Source: Bacillus sp. EB01
Lineage (GTDB): Bacteria > Bacillota > Bacilli > Bacillales > Cytobacillaceae
Length of the DNA stretch: 49,634 nucleotides
Assembly (NCBI RefSeq): GCF_000613125.1
Contig: NZ_HG964497.1
Coordinates: forward strand, 5,174,530-5,224,163
Direction: 5' to 3'
Positions within the stretch are counted from its first letter, which is position 1; the number at the start of each line of letters is the position of its first letter. The notes under the pieces are model-generated. The model was given only the letters and a program-made list of their open reading frames with translations, was not told the DNA's origin and did no database searches. Below, in pieces: positions 4,282 to 43,436 of this stretch. Position numbers and translations under genes: made by a program.

Positions 4282-5355
4282 CTATTTCCGGTGCATTTTA
4301 AATAGCAAAAATAGCTCATTATAATAAGCAAGGTTCTTTTGCCCAAGATTTTCATACACTTCAAGCTTTTCCGTCAGCTCGGCTGGAGGATAGAACCGCT
4401 CATCCTCAGTCATTTCCTCCGGCATTAGCTTAATAGCTTCCTTGTTCGGCGTCGAATAGCTTACCCACTCTGTATTTTGGGCGGAAACCTCGGCATCAAG
4501 CATGAAATTGATAAACTGGTGGGCACCCTCTATATTTTTGGCGGTTTTGGGAATGACCATGTTATCAAACCACAGATTCGAACCTTCGCTTGGAACAACA
4601 TAATCAAGATTTTCATTTTCAGACATGATATCAGCAGCATCGCCCGACCATACAAGTCCGATGCTTGCTTCCTCGTTGGCAAGCAGGATTTTAATTTCGT
4701 CTCCAACTATGGCCTTTATATTCGGAGTAAGTTTATCAAGCTTTTGTTTGGCCTGTTGCAAATGCTCCTTATCGGTATCATTCAGGGAAAACCCCAAGCT
4801 GTTTAGCCCCATTCCCATGACCTCACGAGCGCCATCCACAAGCAGGATTTCGTTTTTCAACTCAGGATCCCACAAGTCATTCCAGCTTGTGAATTTTCTC
4901 CCATCAAGCATCGAGGAGTTATAGACAATCCCGACTGTACCCCAAAAATATGGAACGGAATACGTATTACCCGGATCGAATGGAAGGTCCATAAATCGCT
5001 CATCAATATTTTTCAGGTTTGATATCTTGCTGTGGTCAAGTGGTATCAGCAAGTCCTCCTGCCGCATTTTATCAATCATATACTCCGATGGGACTGCTAC
5101 ATCATAAGAAGTGCCGCCCTGCTGGACTTTTGTCATCATTGCTTCGTTTGAATCAAAGGTTTCATAAACCACACTGATGCCCGTCTCTTCCTCGAAGCGC
5201 TCAATCAGCTCCGGGTCAATATAATCGCCCCAGTTATAGACAGTCAGTGTATTGTCCCCTGAATAGCCTTCCGCAGAATTCAATTGCGAGATTATCGCCA
5301 ACAAAATCACAGAAGCGCTAATAACCCCAACAAATACTCTTACTAGCTGCTTCAT
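4282..5355 (-). CDS. potD: Spermidine/putrescine ABC transporter, substrate-binding protein PotD
   Basis: 357 residues, the extracellular polyamine receptor of the PotABCD importer. After an N-terminal hydrophobic segment (about 5-24) comes the family signature LTVYNWGDYIDPELIERFEE, then SYDVAVPSEYMI, YSVPYFWGTVGIVYN and LWFDNMVIPK, which line the polyamine site in the family. No lipobox cysteine is visible in the hydrophobic segment, so it is either held by an uncleaved anchor or released. Its start overlaps the potC stop by 4 nt (ATGA type), indicating translational coupling. It is the last gene before the operon terminator. Confidence 0.95.
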   Translation of the reverse strand: MKQLVRVFVGVISASVILLAIISQLNSAEGYSGDNTLTVYNWGDYIDPELIERFEEETGISVVYETFDSNEAMMTKVQQGGTSYDVAVPSEYMIDKMRQEDLLIPLDHSKISNLKNIDERFMDLPFDPGNTYSVPYFWGTVGIVYNSSMLDGRKFTSWNDLWDPELKNEILLVDGAREVMGMGLNSLGFSLNDTDKEHLQQAKQKLDKLTPNIKAIVGDEIKILLANEEASIGLVWSGDAADIMSENENLDYVVPSEGSNLWFDNMVIPKTAKNIEGAHQFINFMLDAEVSAQNTEWVSYSTPNKEAIKLMPEEMTEDERFYPPAELTEKLEVYENLGQKNLAYYNELFLLFKMHRK

Positions 5356-11930: not shown

Positions 11931-12419
11931 TTATTTATTTAATTCAATTGTTTCATTAATATCAGCCGATTTAGAATTTTGCCCTGTCATGTGTTTATAC
12001 ATAAAGGCGATTTTCTTCGTAAAATTATCGGTCTCCCAATATTCCGCTGCTTCCGCTTTTATCTTTATCAAGACCACGTTAGGATCGTCATAAGAAGTTT
12101 GCATAATTTTCTCGTATGCTTTGCTCCACAATTCCTTTTTCTTGTTTAAATCCTCAACGATTTCTGCTTTTCCCCGGACGGAAACATACGATTTACCTGC
12201 ATATGCTACATTAACATCCTGATCATCTAAAATTTCTTCATATTTATTAGTCTCTTTTTTAGTAAAAAACCATAAGTCACCATCAAACTCTACCTCTTGT
12301 GTTTTCATAGGTCGAGAAACAAGACCTTCATCAGTTACCGTAGTCAGCATGGCTGTATCCACATCTTTAATTAACTCTCTTAAAGTTTCCATTTCTTCTT
12401 GTTTTATTATGTTAGACAT
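11931..12419 (-). CDS. Pyridoxamine 5'-phosphate oxidase-like protein (general stress protein 26, YdaG-like)
   Basis: 162 residues with the split-barrel flavin-binding fold of the PPOX superfamily: TAMLTTVTDEGLVSRPM in the first strands, DGDLWFFTKKETNKYEEI, VAYAGKSYVSVRGKAEIV, and a C-terminal YWET segment. It resembles the sigma-B-controlled B. subtilis general stress protein YdaG, about 20 residues longer at the C-terminus. These proteins bind FMN or F420-type cofactors, and the reaction is usually unknown. The ATG is 8 nt after GGAGG. I looked for a sigma-B promoter (GTTT...GGGTAT) upstream and found only a poor match. Confidence 0.85.
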   Translation of the reverse strand: MSNIIKQEEMETLRELIKDVDTAMLTTVTDEGLVSRPMKTQEVEFDGDLWFFTKKETNKYEEILDDQDVNVAYAGKSYVSVRGKAEIVEDLNKKKELWSKAYEKIMQTSYDDPNVVLIKIKAEAAEYWETDNFTKKIAFMYKHMTGQNSKSADINETIELNK

Positions 12420-12843
12420 TTCCTATACCTCCTTTACTATTTTTCAGAGGTATACTACCCTTCACACCAAATTTTATTCAGGTACGGGGGATTACTTTCT
12501 AACTAAGTCAAACCAAACTACCCCAACGGATAGATGAGGGTAACCTTTTATGGTAGAATACTCAAACCTAAAAATTTATATAGAAATTTTCGGACATTAT
12601 GAAGAATAATAACAAAACGAGAGAATCTATCCGGTAGAAATAATAAGAGGGCCTAGTTCGATGATTATTAATTAAAGGCAACAACCATAGGGTTAGTTGC
12701 CTTTTTTAAAATTAATCTCGCACTGTCAACCAGTCCTGAGTATATGTCGGGGACACAATAAAAGGTGCTGGAAGTATCTTATATTTAAGTTTATTCCTAT
12801 TTATCCTTTAGTCCCCGTCATTCTTACTATCAATGGGCTAATC
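12420..12843. other. Intergenic region with a bidirectional hairpin
   Basis: Mostly AT-rich sequence. A hairpin at 12673-12706 pairs GGCAAC with GTTGCC and has a run of six T on the plus strand. A 19-codon plus-strand frame at 12550-12609 (start ATG, GAGGG 9 nt upstream) precedes it. It is too short and unsupported to call a gene. Confidence 0.4.
12673..12706 (+). terminator. Intrinsic terminator with no clear upstream gene
   Basis: GGCAAC-AACC-ATA-GGGTT-A-GTTGCC followed by TTTTTT on the plus strand. It may end a short untranslated or leader RNA from about 12540. Confidence 0.55.
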
Positions 12844-13698
12844 TTAAATACGCATTAATGCACCATTAGGCTTAGGTAAATCTTGGTCTATTATCTGATT
12901 CATTTTACAGAAATGCTCAAAAAACTGCTGTGCCAACTCTCGTTCTGTTGGGTCAACTTTCAATGAAACTATATCAAGTAAAATTTGAGCCATCCATAAA
13001 TTATCAAAATAACGGTATTTACCTGTATTCCATGTCATTTTGTTCGGATATTTTTCATTCACATAATATTTCCAGAAATGCATCTGATCCGATTCTTGTT
13101 CAGTAAGTTGGAGTCTGTACGTTGAATGCGCAGGAATATATCCATCTTCACTAAGCTTACCGATAAAATCTTCATTCACCATATAGACACCTAAGATACG
13201 CCTGTCTTTTTCAGGCATGCCGGCATCTACTGCTGTTAACAGGACAGCGCTATTTTGGTGCAAGCGGATCGGTTTGTTTGGTTTTCCCTGGTTATTGCCA
13301 CTTTTTATTACGCCTGAAAAAACCTTCCACTCTGAAAAAGAATTATTCTGTTCTTCTGCGTCACACCAAAAAACCATTTGTGATTCGGGGTGAAGTTTAT
13401 GATTTTTCATAAGTTTTTCATGTTCCAAGCGAAGTTCCAGGTTTTTTTGTTGTAGTTTTTTTTCCTCTTCCTTCTTCCGTTCTTCCTCCTGTCGTTCGGT
13501 TTCCCTTTTTTGTATAATTTTTTCAAGTGAATTAGCAACCATTTTATCATGCAGTTTTAAGTGTTTTCCAAATACATCGGGGTAAACAAACTTTTTATTT
13601 TCCGATGCGAAATTAATTTCGATAACAGAATCGTTATGTTTTACTATACTACCCATGCCAAAACGCTTGTGTGTAACTTTCTTATTGATTAGATTCAA
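12844..13698 (-). CDS. Bacillales protein of unknown function with N-terminal barrel-like and coiled-coil parts
   Basis: 284 residues. Residues 5-45 (KKVTHKRFGMGSIVKHNDSV and following) look like a small beta-barrel of the kind found in SH3/CarD-like modules. Residues about 58-100 are a highly charged helix rich in E, K, R and Q, probably a coiled coil. The C-terminal half (QMVFWCDAEEQ..., RYFDNLWMAQILLDIV) is a conserved domain I have seen in other Bacillaceae and clostridial proteins without a known function. No membrane segment or signal peptide is seen. The start is TTG (13696-13698), 9 nt after AAGGAGG; no ATG lies near. Confidence 0.75.
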   Translation of the reverse strand: MNLINKKVTHKRFGMGSIVKHNDSVIEINFASENKKFVYPDVFGKHLKLHDKMVANSLEKIIQKRETERQEEERKKEEEKKLQQKNLELRLEHEKLMKNHKLHPESQMVFWCDAEEQNNSFSEWKVFSGVIKSGNNQGKPNKPIRLHQNSAVLLTAVDAGMPEKDRRILGVYMVNEDFIGKLSEDGYIPAHSTYRLQLTEQESDQMHFWKYYVNEKYPNKMTWNTGKYRYFDNLWMAQILLDIVSLKVDPTERELAQQFFEHFCKMNQIIDQDLPKPNGALMRI

Positions 13699-36983: not shown

Positions 36984-37676
36984 TTATTTTCCTGAGCGAA
37001 CTGCTTTTACAGTTTCAAGTGCTTGTTGCAAGTTTTCATATATGATATTGCCAACAACAATTACATCTGCATGCCTGGACATTTCCTCTGCCTGCTCCTT
37101 TGTCCGGATTCCTCCTCCATAAAAAAGAATAGATTTCTCAAGACTTGTTTTCGCAGCAGACACCATTTCTGGGTCACCATAGGCTCCACTATATTCAAGA
37201 TAAACAATTGGCATTCCAAACATCTTTTCGGCCATCATTGCATAGGCCTGTACATCCTCGACTGACAGATTTGTATCTGCTTTTGTCAGTCTTGCGGCCT
37301 TGCAGTCTTCGTTAAGAATAATATACGCTTCCATGGCGAACTCGTCCCAATCCACCATATGCCCAAATTCCCTAACTGCCTCAAAATGAAGGCCATTGAT
37401 CCACCTTGGGTCGCGGCTATTCAAAACAGACGGAACGAAGTAGAGGTCAAACCCAGGCGAAACAGAATCAAGATTCGAAATCTCCAGGACACATGGAACT
37501 GTATAGCGGCGAACTCTTGCCATCAAGTCAAGTACCTTTTCAAGTGTGACTCCGTCCGTTCCCCCTATCATAACGGCATCCGTACCTGATTCACAAATTA
37601 TTTCAAGGTCCTTATCAGATAGCTCCTTGGCAGGGTCAAGCTTGAATACATGGCGCCATTCGCGGTAATCGTACAT
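36984..37676 (-). CDS. pcrB: Heptaprenylglyceryl phosphate synthase PcrB
   Basis: 230 residues, TIM barrel that couples glycerol-1-phosphate to a heptaprenyl chain, an archaeal-type ether lipid step found in Bacillales. Family phrases: EWRHVFKLDPAKELSD, ICESGTDAVMIGGTDGVT, YLEYSGAYGD and ILFYGGGIRTKEQAEEM, the last holding the phosphate loop. The ATG at 37676 is 8 nt after GGAGG; an ATG five codons upstream precedes that site and is not used. It heads the pcrB-pcrA-ligA-camS operon. The gene upstream in B. subtilis is yerC (with yerD/yerE between); here a 5-kb cassette intervenes. Confidence 0.94.
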   Translation of the reverse strand: MYDYREWRHVFKLDPAKELSDKDLEIICESGTDAVMIGGTDGVTLEKVLDLMARVRRYTVPCVLEISNLDSVSPGFDLYFVPSVLNSRDPRWINGLHFEAVREFGHMVDWDEFAMEAYIILNEDCKAARLTKADTNLSVEDVQAYAMMAEKMFGMPIVYLEYSGAYGDPEMVSAAKTSLEKSILFYGGGIRTKEQAEEMSRHADVIVVGNIIYENLQQALETVKAVRSGK

Positions 37677-37805
37677 TGATGAATCCTCCATTCACTACTC
37701 CATTAGTCCATTATAGCATCTGGTAAAACGATAAAAAAACAAAACAGGGAAAACAGATTTAGAAATGATAACCAGATACATCAAGGCAATAAAATTTTGT
37801 AAAAC

Positions 37806-37874
37806 AAAAAAAGCCTTATGTTTTTTGATGGTCAATAGCAACTATTTGCTATCAAACATCAATGCTTAAGGCTT
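37806..37874 (-). terminator. Long hairpin terminator overlapping the regulator's 3' end
   Basis: The outer stem AAGCCTTA (near 37811-37818) pairs with TAAGGCTT (37867-37874), and an inner imperfect stem includes ATAGCAA-CTA-TTTGCTAT. TTTTTTT follows on the reverse strand. It begins inside the coding end of the gene at 37859-38752. Confidence 0.7.
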
Positions 37875-38752
37875 CCTAATAGTTTCTGTTTAATTCTGTC
37901 TATATCCTTGCTTGCTTGATTCACATACTGCTGTTTCCCTTCTATTATAAAAAGATTAACAGCATGTTCTATACTTGTTAATGCTTGTTCCAAATGACCC
38001 TGCTCTTCATGAAATCTGCCAATCATATGTTTAATTTTAGCGTACATATAAAATAGATGATTCACTTCAATATGTTCCAAAACTTTAAATCCGATCTTAA
38101 TTGCGCTATCCAAATTATTTAGATAAAACAGACAGTAAGCCAGATTATAACCTACTCTAGGAAGTAATGTTAAATCATTCGTAAAAGGAAGATTTTCTAT
38201 GCTTTGATAAGCCTTTTGGAAATACGATAGGGCTTGTGAATGTCCACTACTCTCCATGATAATAAGCCCCAATGAATTGCAAATACTGATATCCAGTTCG
38301 GTCTTCAGTTTATTAGTATTGACTTTTCTTAAAGTTTTTTCAGCCTTTTGAGGATTCTTGTTGGATTTATGCAAAATAACTGCTTTATGCCATTCTATAT
38401 ATTTATATAATTCTTCATATTCAGGTTGATTTATATAAATCTGTATCAATTTATTAAATTCTTGTAAAACGATCCCTAAACTTGTGAAATCCTGTGAATA
38501 GGTTAACTCCCTGCATAATTTTTTATATTTTTGAATTTGATTAAAATCATCCCTGCTTAAATCACTCACAATATAATTTAAAGGGACTTGTAATCTTTCA
38601 CTTAAAGTTTTAAGTAAATCCAGCCTAGGAATTTGATCATCATTTTCTATCCTAAAAAGAGTTGATGTGTCACAGATGCCTTCACAAAGTTCATTTCTAG
38701 AAAGCCCAACCATGGTTCGATAATATTTCAAGTTATCCCCGATTTTCCCCAA
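37859..38752 (-). CDS. RNPP-family (PlcR/NprR-like) peptide-responsive transcriptional regulator
   Basis: 297 residues. Residues about 5-58 form an Xre-type helix-turn-helix (LKYYRTMVGLSRNELCEG, CDTSTLFRIENDDQIP). The rest is helical with tetratricopeptide-type repeats, e.g. ALSYFQKAYQSIENL, LAYCLFYLNNLDSAIKIGFK and EEQGHLEQALTSIEHAV. This is the architecture and length (285-300) of PlcR-type regulators, which bind a re-imported secreted peptide through the TPR domain. The start is TTG (38750-38752), 6 nt after GGGGAG. A divergent gene 109 bp away encodes a small secreted prepeptide, the normal arrangement for such pairs. The gene is AT-rich compared with pcrB. Likely target: the plus-strand genes beside it. 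Confidence 0.85.
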   Translation of the reverse strand: MGKIGDNLKYYRTMVGLSRNELCEGICDTSTLFRIENDDQIPRLDLLKTLSERLQVPLNYIVSDLSRDDFNQIQKYKKLCRELTYSQDFTSLGIVLQEFNKLIQIYINQPEYEELYKYIEWHKAVILHKSNKNPQKAEKTLRKVNTNKLKTELDISICNSLGLIIMESSGHSQALSYFQKAYQSIENLPFTNDLTLLPRVGYNLAYCLFYLNNLDSAIKIGFKVLEHIEVNHLFYMYAKIKHMIGRFHEEQGHLEQALTSIEHAVNLFIIEGKQQYVNQASKDIDRIKQKLLGSLKH

Positions 38753-38786
38753 ATAAATCTCCCCTTTCTACAATATTACCAATTTA

Positions 38787-38812
38787 TTGCAAAAATGCAT
38801 ATTTTTTAGCAA
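38787..38812. promoter_or_regulatory. Imperfect inverted repeat in the divergent promoter region
   Basis: TTGC-A-AAAAT (38787 on) mirrored by ATTTTTT-A-GCAA (to 38812), centred on ATGCAT. Size (26 bp) and place between regulator and prepeptide genes suit an operator of the RNPP regulator. It is not the PlcR-box consensus TATGnAnnnnTnCATA. Confidence 0.45.
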
Positions 38813-38861
38813 ATATTTTTGAAGGATAATAATTGTAGTACTAAAAATTGGGAGGGATTTT

Positions 38862-39017
38862 GTGAAACGGTATTTTTTTATCATTATGATGATTCTTTCT
38901 TTACTAAACTTAGATACTTCCATTAATAAAGATTCAAAAATTTATGGACCCTATCAAACTTATCAAGTAGCTGATGCAACGGCCGAACTAAATACTTTAA
39001 TTGAGGGTGAGCACTGA
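38862..39017 (+). CDS. Small secreted prepeptide, putative cognate signal of the RNPP regulator
   Basis: 51 codons from GTG at 38862 to TGA at 39015. It starts MKRYFFIIMMILSLLNL, a short basic end plus hydrophobic core like a signal peptide, then a polar region with SKIYGPYQTYQ and a C-terminus AELNTLIEGEH. A very good ribosome site, GGGAGGG, lies 5 nt before the GTG. Size and form match PapR/NprX-type pheromone precursors, which sit next to their receptor gene, are exported, cut by proteases and re-imported by Opp. The mature peptide cannot be predicted. It may instead be a small bacteriocin-like product. Divergent from the regulator, 105 bp before the next secreted protein gene. Confidence 0.65.
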   Translation: MKRYFFIIMMILSLLNLDTSINKDSKIYGPYQTYQVADATAELNTLIEGEH

Positions 39018-39122
39018 TGGTGGCGATTATATAAAGACACCTTTACTAGCGGTAGCATTCTGTCATGCAGGTCACTGGCAGATTCTATAATAACTTTAAT
39101 AGAGAAGGAGAGAGTTTCTTAA

Positions 39123-39527
39123 ATGAAAAAGAAATTAATCTCAGGAATACTGGCAACAGCATTTGCTTTCTCACTATTTGCACCTACTGGATTTGCGGCC
39201 AAAAAAAATATTTCTTTTAGTGTCAATCCTTCAGTTAACAATGGGGTAGCTTTTTCTGCCCCTAATCCAAAGGATGATAATGAACAAAACGCTTATATTT
39301 ACACAACAAATCACAATATTATTGATACAGATCTTTTTTATTATAATGTAAGAAAGGATGACAGTACCTCCGCAACATCATTAACAGGATACTTTAGGGT
39401 AACCCCAACTAACGCATCAAGAATTGTAAAAGGTTACTCTTCATATGTTGGTGCTGGTTATCCCCTTCACCTTCAAGCTGACACCGATAAGTATGGTGTT
39501 TTTGCAGAAGGCTATTGGTACTCTTAA
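39123..39527 (+). CDS. Small secreted protein, DUF2712-like
   Basis: 134 residues. A typical signal peptide (KKK, hydrophobic 5-20, cleavage near GFA-A at 25-26) leaves a mature protein of about 108 residues rich in Tyr, Asn, Ser and Thr. Its parts FSVNPSVNNGVAFSAP, AYIYTTN, SLTGYFRVTP and the ending GVFAEGYWYS recall the DUF2712 family of small exported Bacillus proteins, which often stand beside ABC transporters (from memory: B. subtilis yybN region). The role is unknown; a bacteriocin-like or signalling product is possible. GGAG/GAGAG purines precede the ATG. A strong terminator follows, then the transporter genes. Confidence 0.65.
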   Translation: MKKKLISGILATAFAFSLFAPTGFAAKKNISFSVNPSVNNGVAFSAPNPKDDNEQNAYIYTTNHNIIDTDLFYYNVRKDDSTSATSLTGYFRVTPTNASRIVKGYSSYVGAGYPLHLQADTDKYGVFAEGYWYS

Positions 39528-39552
39528 TACTTAATTTACTTAAAGCAAACAC

Positions 39553-39587
39553 ATAGACCGATAACCTGCATCGGTCTGCTTTTTTCT
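39553..39587 (+). terminator. Intrinsic terminator between secreted-protein and transporter genes
   Basis: AGACCGAT (39555-39562) pairs with ATCGGTCT (39570-39577), followed by GCTTTTTTCTC. No separate promoter is evident in the 32 bp before the next gene. It therefore probably acts by partial read-through, giving much secreted product and little transporter. Confidence 0.8.
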
Positions 39588-39619
39588 CTGTCGTTTATTA
39601 AAGGTCTGGAGGGTTTAAA

Positions 39620-40750
39620 GTGAACAAGGTAGTAATATTGTTTGTCTGTATATCTGCGTTTGTGCTAAGTGCATGTTTTCCCACAGGCGAACATAAGGAT
39701 TCTCTAAATTCTAGAAGCACTAAAACATCCAATGGTCCCACCCCTGAGGTTTTGGAAAGGAAATTGGACGATAATATATTGATTGATGCAGACATAGTGA
39801 GTGATAATGAAAAAAAAATTAAAATTAGTTCTATTTTTCTGAAGGAATTTGATACTGAGCAAGTAAAAAAAACTTTTTTAAAGGATAAGACTATAAAAGA
39901 AATTCATGAAGATGAAGACTGGCTGTTTCATTATAAAAACAAGTATTTTCAATTGTCAGACGAGTCAAATTTAACCATGGAATTAGGTTCTTTGCGGTAT
40001 ACAGATATTTATTACAGTAAGCGGGAATACGATACCGTCATAAGCGGAACTACTTATTTTATTCGCTCTGATTTAAAGGAGGTATTCAAAAATAAATCCC
40101 TTGAAGGAATCGATAAAGCTAAGTCAATTGAAATAGTAAAAAAAGTCGCAAATGAAGTGGGTATAACCAATTTAGGGAATCCAGAAGTATTTGCCCTTGA
40201 TTTTGAAACATTGCAAAGTGAATGGGAGGACTATGAAACGAAAAATGGCGGACATCCACGAAAATGGGAAAAAGCTGATGAAGCATACGTCGTCACCTTT
40301 CCAATTCTTTATGACAATATAGCAATAACGAATAAAGGATATGCAGATGTTAACAATCAAATCTCTGTTATTGGAAGCCGGATTATGGGTGTTGTAAATA
40401 AGAATGGTTTAATATTCTTTACAGGTAGCGGAGTTTATGAATTAGGTGAAACTCTGAAAAAGAACATAACCCCCATTTCGTTGGAAACAGCTTTAGAAAA
40501 GGTCAAAAACAAGTATAAGGATGTTTTAATAACAGATCCTATTGTTATTTCTAAAATTGCTTTGGAATATCTACCGGTTGTAAATAATACAGAAAAAGTT
40601 AAGTTTGAACTTATCCCAGCTTGGATTTTTACAGCAAACCAGGACGTAACCTTTAATGATAAGGGAGGAACTTTTAAAACTAAAGCTGAATTCACAATTA
40701 TTATCACTGGAGAAACTGGTCAAGAAATACGAACAGGAGGCGAGCGGTGA
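39620..40750 (+). CDS. Lipoprotein of unknown function in the ABC cassette
   Basis: 376 residues. Lipobox LSAC with C19 after a hydrophobic signal segment, so the mature part is anchored outside the cell membrane. The rest is hydrophilic, with FLKEFDTEQVKKTFLKDK, VTFPILYDNIAITNKGYADV and a C-terminal PAWIFTANQDVTF, as in regulatory YycH/YycI-like or transporter-linked lipoproteins, but I cannot assign a family. The start is GTG, 6 nt after GGAGGG. Its stop is 1 nt before the next gene's ATG, so it is coupled to the permeases. It may bind the exported product or protect against it. Confidence 0.7.
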   Translation: MNKVVILFVCISAFVLSACFPTGEHKDSLNSRSTKTSNGPTPEVLERKLDDNILIDADIVSDNEKKIKISSIFLKEFDTEQVKKTFLKDKTIKEIHEDEDWLFHYKNKYFQLSDESNLTMELGSLRYTDIYYSKREYDTVISGTTYFIRSDLKEVFKNKSLEGIDKAKSIEIVKKVANEVGITNLGNPEVFALDFETLQSEWEDYETKNGGHPRKWEKADEAYVVTFPILYDNIAITNKGYADVNNQISVIGSRIMGVVNKNGLIFFTGSGVYELGETLKKNITPISLETALEKVKNKYKDVLITDPIVISKIALEYLPVVNNTEKVKFELIPAWIFTANQDVTFNDKGGTFKTKAEFTIIITGETGQEIRTGGER

Positions 40751-40751
40751 C

Positions 40752-41540
40752 ATGAATAGAAGAGCCTTTACCATGTCCTTTATACAGTTGTTCTCCTCTC
40801 CAGTTTTTTATCTTTCCATTATTGGGGTTACTGTTCTTTGTTTTATTAGCATTTGGGAGAAAATTTCTGCCTCCGGAGCAGGTATAACGGTCTACTATAG
40901 TTTGGATATTTTCATAGGGCTAACGATGTTAAAAAAATTGGTCGTGCTATTTGCTGCCCTTCCTTATGTTTCAAGCTTTTGTACTGACTGGAAATTTCAA
41001 TACATAAAACCTGTAGTCATTCGAACGGGAATTAATAGGTATATTTGGTCCAAAGTTGTAACTTGTTTTGTTAGCGGTTTCTTAACTGTTTTTATTGGGC
41101 TAATTACGTTCATTTCATTACTTTCGTTTAAACTGCCTTTGTTTCCAACTGAATATTTAAATCAGGAATTTAATAATCAAACATTTGGATCGCTAGCCTT
41201 AGGGGATTATCCACTCCTGTTTTTATTGGCAAAGAGTCTCGTTTTTAGTTTGGCTGCTGCCTTATGGTCCGTTGTGGGCTTAGCCGTTTCAGCATTCATT
41301 CCGATTCCTTTTGTTGCAATCGCTACACCTGTTATTGCCAGTTACATACTGGAAGAGCTAACGATGAGCCTGCCTTCTTGGCTTAACCTTTATTTGTTAA
41401 CGAGAAGCGGGAATGTAATACAGGAAGGTCCGCTAGTTAGTTTGGCTTTTTTTATTTTTATTTTCATTTTTTATTCTGTTTTAGCGGGATTCTTGTTTAA
41501 TTATCAAGTAAAGAGGCGAATGCGTAATGAGGTTGTTTAA
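40752..41540 (+). CDS. ABC transporter membrane protein (ABC-2-like), first of two
   Basis: 262 residues with about six membrane segments. Between the first two (near 15-30 and 50-75) lies a charged loop, and near residues 75-95 FCTDWKFQYIKPVVIRTGINRYIWSK, a cytoplasmic coupling-type stretch seen in ABC-2 family permeases. The open frame extends 32 codons upstream into the lipoprotein gene but the AGGAGG lies 11 nt before the ATG at 40752, which I take as start. It overlaps the following permease gene by 14 nt. Confidence 0.7.
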   Translation: MNRRAFTMSFIQLFSSPVFYLSIIGVTVLCFISIWEKISASGAGITVYYSLDIFIGLTMLKKLVVLFAALPYVSSFCTDWKFQYIKPVVIRTGINRYIWSKVVTCFVSGFLTVFIGLITFISLLSFKLPLFPTEYLNQEFNNQTFGSLALGDYPLLFLLAKSLVFSLAAALWSVVGLAVSAFIPIPFVAIATPVIASYILEELTMSLPSWLNLYLLTRSGNVIQEGPLVSLAFFIFIFIFYSVLAGFLFNYQVKRRMRNEVV

Positions 41541-42378
41541 TACATCCCGGTTAGTCTGTTATCAAAATTTTCGTAAGTGGCCATCTAATTACAGAGTATG
41601 GGTAATTGCAATCCTACTCACCATATTGACCCACAACTTCACAAAAGAAATCATGGATTTCTCGCAAGACATTAATATCGATGTTTCCCCCTGGTTGTTT
41701 CCTTTTCTATTTACCCAGAAGTTTATTAAGCTTCTATTCTTTTTTCCATTAATCCTACTCTTTTGCGATGCTCCGTTCATCGATGATAATCAGCCATATA
41801 TCATTGCAAGGAGCGGCCGGATTCCATGGAGTATCGGGCAAATAGGATATATTATCATCGCGTCCGCATTTTACTTTATCTTTTTGATGGTCATATCCAT
41901 CCTAATAAATCTCCCAACAATCCAGTTTTCAATGGAATGGGGAAAAGTACTTGGCACGCTTGCAAATACAAATGCATCTGTAGTGGTTGGGTTAAAAACA
42001 GTAATTACTTCAAGTACCCTTCACTATTTTTCACCTTTCCAGGCGATGTGGTTCTCTTTTTTGCTTTCATGGATGGCGGGTATTTTTTTAGGATTGTTAA
42101 TTTACCTAATTAATTCTCTCACAAATACAAGAATTTTTGGCGTTTTAACGGCTTCATTCTTTCTTGTTTTGGATGCAGCAGTTACAGGCAAATCGCATCT
42201 CTACAGCTTTTCTCCTCTTTCTTGGAGCAATCTTGATCGGATTGATATTGAAGGTACTACACTAATGCCATCGATAACTTATATCTATGTTAGTTTCGCA
42301 CTACTAATTGTCGGAATGATAATATCTGCAATTATTACAAATCGAAAACAATCCATTAACGTTTTACCTCCAATTTAA
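41527..42378 (+). CDS. ABC transporter membrane protein (ABC-2-like), second of two
   Basis: 283 residues, about six to seven membrane segments (near 24-36, 60-82, 102-125, 170-195, 203-222, 250-275). It also has a loop FIDDNQPYIIARSGRIPWSIGQ that parallels the RTGxxRYIWSK region of its neighbour, so the two are likely homologous halves of one channel. The start overlaps the previous gene by 14 nt, indicating coupled translation, and the ATPase gene follows 20 bp later. The substrate is unknown. Confidence 0.7.
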   Translation: MRLFNTSRLVCYQNFRKWPSNYRVWVIAILLTILTHNFTKEIMDFSQDINIDVSPWLFPFLFTQKFIKLLFFFPLILLFCDAPFIDDNQPYIIARSGRIPWSIGQIGYIIIASAFYFIFLMVISILINLPTIQFSMEWGKVLGTLANTNASVVVGLKTVITSSTLHYFSPFQAMWFSFLLSWMAGIFLGLLIYLINSLTNTRIFGVLTASFFLVLDAAVTGKSHLYSFSPLSWSNLDRIDIEGTTLMPSITYIYVSFALLIVGMIISAIITNRKQSINVLPPI

Positions 42379-42398
42379 CGAAAAGAGGACAGCTATCT

Positions 42399-43079
42399 AT
42401 GCAGACTGCTATTAAAATTACGAATGTAACAAAAAAATTTGGAGATACAACTGTTTTAAACGGAATTTCCCTCTCTCTAGATAAATATAAAATACATGGA
42501 TTAATTGGCAGAAACGGTTCAGGAAAGACCATGCTATTAAAATGCATTTGTGGGTTTGTAATCCCAACATCCGGGACTATTAGGGTAAATGGGAAGCAAA
42601 TAGGAAAAGATTGTGATGTACCTGAAAGCATAGGAATCATTATTGAAGCTCCCGGATTTCTTCCCAATTATGACGGATACACGAATTTAAAATTCCTGGC
42701 AGCGATTAAAAATAAAATTTCGAAAGAACAGATTCTTGCTGTGATTGAAAAGGTCGGACTGGATCCTAAAAGCAAAAAACACGTCGGCAAGTATTCTTTA
42801 GGAATGAGGCAACGCCTTGGACTGGCACAGGCACTCATGGAAGACCCGGATATCCTTATTCTTGATGAACCTATGAATGGACTGGACAATCGGGGAGTAG
42901 CAGATATCCGCAGGCTCCTTCTTGAATTAAGAGACCGCGGAAAAACGATCATTCTTGCCAGCCATGGTAAAGAGGATATTGAAATACTCTGTGACACGGT
43001 ACATGAGCTGGACCAAGGGCAGATAATAAATTCATTTAGTAAAGCCGAAAAGTTGGAGACCCAAACTAAAATAAGATAA
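42399..43079 (+). CDS. ABC transporter ATP-binding protein (BcrA/lantibiotic-immunity-like)
   Basis: 226 residues. Walker A GRNGSGKT (37-44), signature YSLGMRQR (132-139), Walker B ILILDEP (152-158) and switch H189. The region after Walker A, IIIEAPGFLPNYDGYTNL, has Glu where most ATPases have the Q-loop Gln. This is a mark of the bacitracin (BcrA) and lantibiotic self-protection ATPases that work with ABC-2 permeases. So the transporter likely removes or exports a peptide or a membrane-active compound. RBS AAGAGGA is near the ATG. It is the last gene of the cassette, before a bidirectional terminator. Confidence 0.88.
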   Translation: MQTAIKITNVTKKFGDTTVLNGISLSLDKYKIHGLIGRNGSGKTMLLKCICGFVIPTSGTIRVNGKQIGKDCDVPESIGIIIEAPGFLPNYDGYTNLKFLAAIKNKISKEQILAVIEKVGLDPKSKKHVGKYSLGMRQRLGLAQALMEDPDILILDEPMNGLDNRGVADIRRLLLELRDRGKTIILASHGKEDIEILCDTVHELDQGQIINSFSKAEKLETQTKIR

Positions 43080-43083
43080 AAGG

Positions 43084-43117
43084 AAAAAGCCGGGAACAAT
43101 TTCCCGGCTTTTTCTAA
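43084..43117. terminator. Bidirectional intrinsic terminator at the cassette's right edge
   Basis: AAAAGCCGGGAA and TTCCCGGCTTTTT form a perfect stem around CAATT. It serves the plus-strand ABC operon and the minus-strand yerC, and marks the border of the accessory cassette. Confidence 0.85.
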
Positions 43118-43121
43118 AAAC

Positions 43122-43436
43122 TTATTCCTCTGTATTAGTCGATACAGGCTCCTTCACCCGTTCAAGCACCATTTCATACCCATCGTTTCCATAATTCAGG
43201 CAGCGCTTAACCCGAGAAATGGTTGCTGTACTTGCACCTGTCTCACTTTCTATCTTGTGGTAGGTCTTGCCTTCACGAAGCATTCTTGCCACCTCAAGCC
43301 GCTGAGCCAGCGACTGGATTTCATTGACTGTACATAAGTCATCGAACAAACGATAGCATTCCTCAAGGTCTTCCAAAGAAAGGATTGCATTGAAAAGCTG
43401 GTCTAGTTCTTTTCCTCTTAATTTATTAATTTGCAT
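43122..43436 (-). CDS. yerC: YerC/YecD-family TrpR-like DNA-binding protein
   Basis: 104 residues. It contains the TrpR-fold helix-turn-helix: EIQSLAQRLEVARMLREGKT followed by SETGASTATISRVKRCLNYG, the latter being the recognition helix. Family members are named after B. subtilis YerC; the regulated genes are not known to me. A longer frame exists upstream but overlaps yerB. The ATG at 43436 follows AAGGGGTG by 6 nt. It is 40 bp after yerB in the same direction. In B. subtilis it lies just before the pcrB group; here the cassette separates them. Confidence 0.92.
   Translation of the reverse strand: MQINKLRGKELDQLFNAILSLEDLEECYRLFDDLCTVNEIQSLAQRLEVARMLREGKTYHKIESETGASTATISRVKRCLNYGNDGYEMVLERVKEPVSTNTEE

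What the first reader, a model, noticed from the sequence alone, without database searches (positions are those of the whole stretch)
37806..43117. Peptide-regulated secretion/immunity cassette inserted between pcrB and yerC
Seen: within 5.3 kb bounded by terminators stand an RNPP-type regulator (HTH plus TPR), a divergent 51-codon prepeptide gene, a secreted DUF2712-like protein, a lipoprotein, two coupled membrane proteins and an ABC ATPase with the BcrA-like IIIEAPGF segment. The stretch is AT-richer than its flanks. Known: yerC and pcrB are near neighbours in B. subtilis, so the cassette interrupts conserved synteny. Inference: a mobile quorum-sensing module in which a pheromone controls production of a secreted antimicrobial or signal and its export or immunity. 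I know of no described system with exactly this gene set.
Basis: partly seen in the sequence, partly recalled or inferred. Interest (0 to 1): 0.85.

Follow-up and report, generated by a model that had tools for sequence, protein, structure and literature searches.

The report
Pheromone-switched secreted-protein and transporter cassette
A relative of Bacillus has acquired a small block of genes in which a secreted signal peptide and its receptor probably switch on an undescribed secreted protein, plausibly an antibacterial, together with a lipoprotein and pump that may protect the producer.

Summary
In detail: seven genes (37859-43079) lie between pcrB and yerC, AT-rich (34.9% vs 42.9% GC), absent from that junction in 7 of 7 congeners. 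PERM2 identity to seven other carriers (72-88%) exceeds that of PcrB (57-67%), suggesting horizontal arrival. The regulator is a PlcR-like RRNPP receptor. Its close relatives sit beside divergent small peptide genes ending G-x-H (6 of 9 distinct loci), like this 51-aa peptide (...LIEGEH). An operator (GCNNAAATGCATATWT) followed by exactly 20 nt and an [ACG]ATAAT hexamer is in 8 of 9 distinct loci; its one exact match in this 5.28-Mb genome is just before the peptide gene. This points to a pheromone-activated promoter reading into the cassette. The cassette (secreted protein, YycI-like lipoprotein, two permeases, ATPase) is rare and patchy and stands elsewhere beside ECF-sigma-like or two-component genes: a conserved effector unit with exchanged regulators. 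I infer a Sec-secreted antibacterial with ABC immunity; activity is untested. The DUF2712 label is not supported. Unexpected lead: a 5' UTR element of the secreted gene and the loop of its 3' hairpin are complementary, with two compensatory changes in one distant relative, none in another.

The parts
37859..38752 (-). REG: PlcR-like HTH plus TPR (RRNPP) receptor/activator, 297 aa, TTG start
   Evidence: HTH_3, TPR_8 and RNPP_C above Pfam cut-offs; only PDB sequence match at E<=0.01 is PlcR 2qfc, E 6.9e-8
38789..38804 (+). REG operator GCAAAAATGCATATTT
   Evidence: matches GCNNAAATGCATATWT, found with 0-2 mismatches in 8 of 9 distinct near-REG loci; the only exact match in the own genome, both strands
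38825..38830 (+). -10 hexamer GATAAT of the PEP51 promoter, 20 nt after the operator
   Evidence: [ACG]ATAAT at exactly this spacing in 8 of 8 distinct loci with the box
38862..39017 (+). PEP51: pheromone precursor, 51 aa, GTG start, C-terminus TLIEGEH
   Evidence: ribosome-binding site by eye (sequence); divergent peptides ending G-x-H beside 6 of 9 distinct near-REG genes
39052..39088 (+). conserved 5' UTR element of SEC134, predicted hairpin, holds GCAGGT (39067-39072)
   Evidence: ATGCAGGT conserved in the 5 close SEC loci although DNA further upstream differs; fold prediction
39123..39527 (+). SEC134: Sec-type secreted 134-aa protein, the presumed effector
   Evidence: 64-68% identical in 4 other loci; distant homologues at the first position of the operons in L078 and L122
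39554..39578 (+). terminator-like hairpin after SEC134; loop AACCTGC complements the 5' element
39620..40750 (+). LIPO: lipoprotein, 376 aa, YycI-like fold
   Evidence: AF2 model pLDDT 72.9 matches 5coz E 1.8e-16 and YycI 2o3o E 2.6e-7; 6 of 8 family members hit PF19499 (DUF6034) at E<=0.01, the window copy does not
40752..41540 (+). PERM1: ABC permease-like membrane protein, 262 aa
   Evidence: 5 hydrophobic segments over threshold; beside PERM2 and ATP in the 7 close carriers and L122
41527..42378 (+). PERM2: ABC permease-like membrane protein, 283 aa, overlaps PERM1
   Evidence: 5 hydrophobic segments over threshold; 72-88% identity to 7 relatives, 38% to L122
42399..43079 (+). ATP: ABC ATPase, LanF/BcrA-like
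   Evidence: ABC_tran E 3.6e-32; TIGR03740 189.3 bits, below cut-off
43083..43114 (.). terminator-like hairpin between the convergent ATP and yerC genes
   Evidence: 14-bp stem, listed on the - strand

Best explanation
A horizontally acquired, density-switched effector cassette. PEP51 is exported by Sec and trimmed to a C-terminal peptide near TLIEGEH; oligopeptide permease takes it back up (inferred from PlcR-PapR). The REG-peptide complex binds the single operator at 38789-38804 and recruits RNA polymerase to a promoter with a -10 but no good -35, giving rightward transcription of PEP51 (positive feedback) and SEC134, with partial read-through past the internal hairpin into LIPO-PERM1-PERM2-ATP. 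SEC134 is a Sec-secreted antibacterial protein; LIPO plus the ABC pump protect the producer by binding and expelling it or clearing its target. Shown by comparison: the receptor family, the peptide-operator-promoter layout and the foreign origin. Inferred: activation by the peptide, co-transcription, antibacterial action and immunity.
For: REG is PlcR-like. Divergent small ORFs ending G-x-H accompany 6 of 9 distinct near-REG genes, against 16 of 6,343 small ORFs ending G-x-H in all loci held, positives included. Operator with 0-2 mismatches in 8 of 9 distinct loci; exact in L070 and L072, which were not used to write the pattern. Fixed 20-nt spacing to a -10 hexamer in 8 of 8. One exact operator in the genome. 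Several REG relatives sit beside what look like biosynthetic clusters (names by eye; radical SAM and B12-binding domains confirmed in L069), and RRNPP pairs next to such clusters are described (PMC10075063 section 12). No consensus promoter on the + strand between 38890 and 39752 and no terminator between PEP51 and SEC134 were called. SEC-LIPO-PERM1-PERM2-ATP keeps its order in 6 loci including a distant family. SEC-less copies (L022, L025, L026) keep LIPO and pump behind an ECF-sigma-like gene and a second gene with the look of an anti-sigma factor (domains tested in L025 only), as one would expect of stand-alone protection. PERM2 72-88% and ATP 79-88% identical, PcrB 57-67%, in the same seven carriers.
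Against: No activity is known. SEC134 and its relatives match no bacteriocin family and the structure model is useless (pLDDT 36). ECF-sigma-like genes near SEC-bearing copies (L122 directly, L078 about 2 kb beyond the far end) fit stress protection as well as attack. Three near-REG loci (L070, L072, L077) lack a peptide gene of this kind; in L077 the regulator itself is split over two frames. A 19-residue hydropathy window did not flag PEP51 and no signal-peptide program was run. The promoter scan of the block found no more sites than shuffles (18 vs 20.6). On the horizontal origin: LIPO (49-71%) and SEC (64-68%) identities are not above PcrB; only the pump genes are.
Confidence: 0.5

Rival explanations
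1. SEC134 is not a toxin. It is a secreted shield or target-binding protein, and LIPO plus the pump form an antimicrobial-peptide detoxification unit; here the unit is switched by density instead of envelope stress.
For: In L122 the unit is divergent from an ECF-sigma-like gene and a DUF4367 protein; L078 has ECF-sigma-like genes nearby; in L025/L026/L022 the SEC-less unit follows such genes, with a MucB/RseB match in L025; in L021 a two-component pair is adjacent (kinase domains). LIPO resembles the sensor-type protein YycI.
Against: A pheromone-controlled secreted protein ahead of a terminator-like hairpin is the layout of a highly made effector gene; REG relatives elsewhere sit beside what look like biosynthetic clusters.
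Confidence: 0.3
2. The ABC pump and lipoprotein export or process PEP51 or SEC134 (a secretion unit, not immunity).
For: Gene adjacency.
Against: SEC134 and PEP51 have Sec-type N-termini of their own (by eye; SEC134 segment 5-23); the pump occurs without SEC134 in three loci; the ATPase scores best with the immunity-type LanF model.
Confidence: 0.08
3. REG controls only itself and PEP51; SEC134 and the pump are expressed independently, and their neighbourhood is a chance of insertion.
For: 34 bp separate the PEP51 stop from the conserved SEC leader element and 105 bp from the SEC134 start, room for a promoter that the scan does not recognise; the Niallia and Terrihalobacillus copies have different upstream DNA.
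Against: No consensus promoter or terminator called in that gap; same strand; both halves are AT-rich.
Confidence: 0.1

Closest known systems
PlcR-PapR and PlcRa-PapRa (Bacillus cereus group RRNPP pairs; passages of PMC2464732, and PMC3519770)
   Same: HTH plus TPR receptor whose only PDB match is PlcR; small secreted precursor with a C-terminal peptide; operator resembles the right half of the PlcR box.
   Different: Divergent gene order; peptide ends LIEGEH instead of ADLPFEF; operator lacks A2, which could not be replaced in the PlcR box; fixed 20-nt spacing to -10, whereas PlcR boxes lie at various distances ahead of -35; one exact site instead of a regulon.
RRNPP pairs predicted to control adjacent biosynthetic clusters (PMC10075063; passages, and section 12)
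   Same: Adjacent receptor-propeptide pair next to effector genes.
   Different: The target here is an unnamed secreted-protein plus lipoprotein plus ABC unit. I could not check whether this pair is in their supplementary lists.
Lactococcin 972 operon (passages of PMC4055356)
   Different: No family match of SEC134 to it; a separate lipoprotein and two permeases here, two genes (orf2-orf3) there.
LanFEG plus LanI / BcrAB immunity pumps (recalled)
   Same: ATPase of the LanF group, two small permeases, lipoprotein.
   Different: ATPase scores below the LanF cut-off; permeases and lipoprotein match no named family; no lanthipeptide genes seen in the block.
icaR mRNA 5'-3' UTR pairing (passages of PMC3868564)
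   Same: 5' UTR pairs with 3' UTR of the same mRNA.
   Different: Here a 5' element and a hairpin loop, not the Shine-Dalgarno; sequence evidence only.

Membership tests
RRNPP quorum-sensing pair (criteria of PMC10075063; four of five seen in the passage, adjacency from its abstract) | small propeptide adjacent to receptor | tested here: met
   51 aa, divergent, 109-bp gap
RRNPP quorum-sensing pair | Sec signal in the propeptide | tested here: inconclusive
   KR followed by a hydrophobic run by eye; 19-residue hydropathy window did not reach threshold; SignalP not available
RRNPP quorum-sensing pair | receptor of about 250-500 aa with TPR and, for transcription factors, HTH | tested here: met
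   297 aa, HTH_3, TPR_8, RNPP_C
RRNPP quorum-sensing pair | peptide binds receptor and changes transcription | not testable with these tools
   needs experiment
PlcR-PapR subfamily proper | operator TATGNANNNNTNCATA with A2, T3, G4 essential | tested here: not met
   window site ATTGCAAAAATGCATA has 2 mismatches incl. A2 (requirement from the passage)
PlcR-PapR subfamily proper | PapR-like C-terminus (LPFE.) | tested here: not met
   LIEGEH; more distant REG relatives L053 and L057 do end DLPFEH
DUF2712 (PF10916) | profile match to SEC134 | tested here: not met
   no hit at E<=1; 0 of 21 genomes, B. subtilis control positive
Lantibiotic immunity ATPase LanF (TIGR03740) | score over curated cut-off 309.75 | tested here: not met
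   189.3 bits
Lactococcin 972 bacteriocins | profile match of SEC134 in Pfam/NCBIfam (that these hold such a model is recalled) | tested here: not met
   not among hits at E<=1
DUF6034 (PF19499) | profile match over cut-off 27 bits | tested here: not met
   6 of 8 LIPO relatives match at E<=0.01, best 2.3e-5; the one score shown, L025, is 23.8 bits; window copy no hit
Self-mobile element | integrase/transposase in the block, or presence on phage/viral records | tested here: not met
   none among the seven genes; REG, SEC134 not in phages, REG, PERM2 not in viral contigs; the one plasmid-collection carrier is the 1.44-Mb replicon of Niallia taxi

The most novel reading that the evidence does not exclude
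SEC-LIPO-PERM1-PERM2-ATP is an ancient, undescribed five-gene system of Bacillota: a secreted effector with its own lipoprotein-pump immunity. It plugs into interchangeable sensors (RRNPP pheromone, ECF sigma/anti-sigma, two-component system), and its effector mRNA is closed by a covarying 5' UTR-3' UTR loop contact that gates its output.
Probability: 0.2. Interest if true: 0.82.

Novelty: new variant of a known kind. Interest (0 to 1): 0.62.

Why it matters
It gives a directly testable pheromone (C-terminal TLIEGEH), an operator with exact promoter spacing for a PlcR-like subgroup that also sits beside likely RiPP and other biosynthetic clusters, and a small unnamed effector/pump unit to assay. 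The same unit beside three kinds of regulator is a natural case of a conserved effector operon whose control has been exchanged. The UTR pairing, if real, would be an unusual case of 5'-3' communication within a bacterial mRNA.

Tried and rejected
DUF2712 identity of SEC134: rejected. A DUF2712 literature search gave nothing useful (badly framed by me) and then no paper; DUF6034 also none. A classical PlcR-box search in the window found 10 sites with up to two mismatches against 5.9 expected (9 of 100 shuffles reach 10), uninformative. The genome-wide scan with one mismatch gave 51 forward sites (and the same 51 in reverse, the pattern being palindromic) against 27 for the reversed control; not used. 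SEC134 structure: pLDDT 36, so no fold search was made with it. LIPO by sequence against the PDB: only chance-like matches, best E 0.022; by fold it worked. Rfam: 3 matches, all below cut-offs. PADLOC: only HTH- and ATPase-type matches. Viral contigs: no relative of PERM2 or REG. Phages: none for REG or SEC134. Plasmids: only Niallia taxi for LIPO, SEC134 and the L122 LIPO, none for the L078 SEC, four weak REG relatives.

UTR pairing as a strong duplex: whole-UTR duplex energies beat shuffles only in L021 (2 of 200 as strong); window 71, L027 52, L028 24, L029 63 of 200. With hairpins picked automatically, the 6-7-nt complement between 5' hairpin and 3' apical loop is reached by 26-76 of 5000 shuffles in window, L021, L028, L029 and L122; in L027 the wrong hairpins were picked, and L078/L115 show only a 4-nt complement, reached by 1122 of 5000. 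In these folds the full 5' hexamer lies in an apical loop only in L122; in window and L021 five of six bases do, and in L028/L029 it is in a stem. So it stays a lead.
Full report
WHAT IS THERE. The block between pcrB (36984-37691, -) and yerC (-) holds REG (-), PEP51, SEC134, LIPO, PERM1, PERM2 and ATP (+). REG has HTH_3, TPR_8 and RNPP_C matches above cut-off. SEC134, LIPO, PERM1 and PERM2 match no Pfam family above cut-off. PERM1 and PERM2 overlap, and PERM1 follows LIPO at once. A terminator-like hairpin lies between SEC134 and LIPO and another closes the block (6 such sites found in the region, 3.6 expected from shuffles).

IT IS FOREIGN. GC is 0.349 against 0.429 for the rest of the window; of 135 overlapping same-size windows outside the block none is below 0.383. 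In 7 of 7 congeners searched, pcrB and yerC are neighbours without the block. The nearest congener (L031, PcrB 98%) matches the window at 265 of 268 bases up to 37773 and then diverges. PERM2 was found in 7 of 193 genomes of the family, the window's own included and one of them (G007) only as fragments. Decayed copies are in L030 (those fragments) and L024 (a PERM2 remnant beside an intact ATPase). In seven other carriers with an intact PERM2 the identities to the window are PERM2 72-88%, ATP 79-88%, PERM1 68-77%, LIPO 49-71%, and SEC 64-68% in the four that have it; their PcrB is 57-67% identical. So the pump genes are closer than a vertical marker, the extracellular parts are not. None of these carriers has pcrA, pcrB, yerC or REG within the stretch read. 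I conclude that the block was gained here; none of its genes looks like a mobility gene.

THE PHEROMONE PAIR. The single PDB sequence match of REG is PlcR (E 6.9e-8). In 397 genomes of the order, 294 have some match at E<=1e-3, a broad superfamily; 10 including the own genome reach 1e-30. In the family it is 2 of 193 at 1e-30. I examined 11 loci of this close group (window, L069-L077, L117), nine distinct if the three with identical peptides (L073-L075) count once. A divergent hydrophobic-headed small ORF ending G-x-H is present in 6 of 9 distinct: window LIEGEH, L069 LIPGNH, L071 FIEGNH, L073-75 and L076 PIIGHH, L117 PIPGHH. It is absent in L070 and L072 (a divergent MFS-like gene instead) and in L077, whose regulator is split over two frames. 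Of 6,343 unique ORFs of 25-90 aa in the loci held then, 16 end G-x-H, positives included. Some more distant REG relatives have divergent peptides with PapR-like ends (DLPFEH in L053 and L057) or repeats (ELPSVY in L049 and L051); in others no such ORF stood out.

THE OPERATOR AND PROMOTER. From window, L069, L071, L073 and L076 I wrote the pattern GCNNAAATGCATATWT. It lies within 300 bp upstream of REG in 8 of 9 distinct loci: exact in six, with one mismatch in L076 and two in L117; none in L077. L070 and L072 were not used to write it and match exactly. Exactly 20 nt beyond the box, away from REG, is a hexamer [ACG]ATAAT in 8 of 8 distinct loci; that offset scores 40 of 48 matches to TATAAT against 28 for the next best of the 37 offsets tried. 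The pentamer ATAAT starts at 19 of 2,488 surrounding positions, these sites included. The own genome has one exact match, at window 38789-38804; with up to one mismatch there are 13 sites, against 7 for the reversed-pattern control. The layout is that of an activator-dependent promoter reading into PEP51, with one target. The box resembles the right half of the PlcR box but lacks A2, which could not be replaced there, so I do not file REG as PlcR proper.

THE EFFECTOR UNIT. SEC-LIPO-PERM1-PERM2-ATP stands in the same order in the window, Terrihalobacillus (L021), three genomes of one genus (L027-L029; L028 is the 1.44-Mb replicon of Niallia taxi) and a distant family (L122). L122 PERM2 is 38% identical and its SEC 27% (single-comparison E 2e-4). 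Three carriers (L022, L025, L026) have no SEC and instead, just upstream, an ECF-sigma-like gene and a second gene that looks like an anti-sigma factor; domains were tested in L025 only: sigma-70 regions 2 and 4, and MucB/RseB. L122 has an ECF-sigma-like gene (by eye) and a DUF4367 protein divergent from the unit. L078 has a related SEC with a larger permease set, and ECF-sigma-like genes about 2 kb beyond its far end. L021 has a two-component pair. A LIPO profile found 2 of 299 genomes of the phylum, one being the own; SEC134 alone found 2 of 397 in the order, and a SEC profile 8 of 193 in the family, two of them weak partial hits. The unit is rare and patchy. LIPO is modelled with pLDDT 72.9 and matches 5coz (E 1.8e-16) and YycI (E 2.6e-7); SEC134 could not be modelled. 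LIPO is the fastest changing part among close carriers, as one would expect of a partner of a changing ligand; that is inference.

HOW IT PROBABLY WORKS. At high density re-imported peptide activates REG, which switches on PEP51 and SEC134. The hairpin after SEC134 would make the secreted protein the main product, with some read-through for lipoprotein and pump. Because SEC134 has its own Sec-type N-terminus, the pump is better read as protection than export. The rival reading, a stress-protection unit put under density control, stays open. RRNPP pairs beside biosynthetic clusters are well described (PMC10075063, section 12 read), and a bacteriocin with a putative immunity ABC transporter is known from lactococcin 972 (PMC4055356, passages). 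Four searches of the held library (20 of 35, 20 of 50, 10 of 16 and 2 of 2 papers listed) showed no title or abstract start that describes this combination; I read passages or sections of a few only, and the library is partial.

AN UNEXPECTED LEAD. The SEC134 5' UTR carries a conserved element with ATGCAGGT, and the hairpin after the gene has ACCTGCAT, its exact complement, in all five close loci. I noted this before L122 was fetched. There, the positions that I take as homologous read GCGAGT (5') and ACTCGC (3'), again complementary, with two compensatory changes. Against it: L078 and L115 show no such pairing; whole-UTR duplex energies are not unusual in four of five close loci; and the predicted folds put the whole 5' hexamer in a loop only in L122. 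5'-3' UTR pairing in a bacterial mRNA has precedent in icaR (PMC3868564, passages).

VERDICT. Real, foreign, and very probably pheromone-controlled; the effector unit is undescribed as far as these searches go, and its antibacterial role is an inference.

Noticed in passing
window 39065-39072 and 39564-39571; L122 upstream of 4682 and 5113-5192: A 5' UTR element and the 3' hairpin loop of SEC genes are complementary in 5 close loci, and in L122 with two compensatory changes; not in L078/L115.
   Followed up: partly
L069 5862-7769 and 5679-5855; L071 5741-7636: REG relatives stand next to a radical SAM protein (B12-binding match in L069), a 58-aa possible precursor (L069) and an M16-peptidase-like gene (by eye): probable pheromone-controlled RiPP clusters.
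   Followed up: partly
L073-L076, L123: REG relatives with peptides ending P-I-x-G-H-H stand beside acyltransferase-like, short-chain dehydrogenase-like and GHMP-kinase-like genes, probably a biosynthetic cluster (names by eye).
   Followed up: partly
L049, L051, L058 upstream of the REG relative: Propeptides with tandem pheromone-like repeats (ELPSVY; AIPFPPRML).
   Followed up: no
L021 5580: The SEC gene of Terrihalobacillus has no usual start codon at the aligned position; it may be silent or start elsewhere.
   Followed up: no
L031 7886-8254, L032 6521-6856: The two nearest congeners have long pcrB-yerC gaps; that of L031 is unrelated to the block by blastn, and that of L032 resembles a dispersed Bacillus repeat (recalled).
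   Followed up: no
window 43110-43160: By eye, the last codons of yerC in the window look more like L035/L037 than like the nearest congener L031, hinting that recombination reached into yerC.
   Followed up: no
L025 3783-6379: The SEC-less cassette of Bacillus sp. V3-13 lies beside a radical SAM protein and an MFS-like transporter.
   Followed up: no
L024 8001-8983; L030 4617-10006: Decaying copies of the cassette: a PERM2 remnant beside an intact ATPase, and PERM2 fragments with a separate ATPase.
   Followed up: partly
window 11931-13698: A second AT-rich stretch (gene GC 0.34-0.36) in the window.
   Followed up: no
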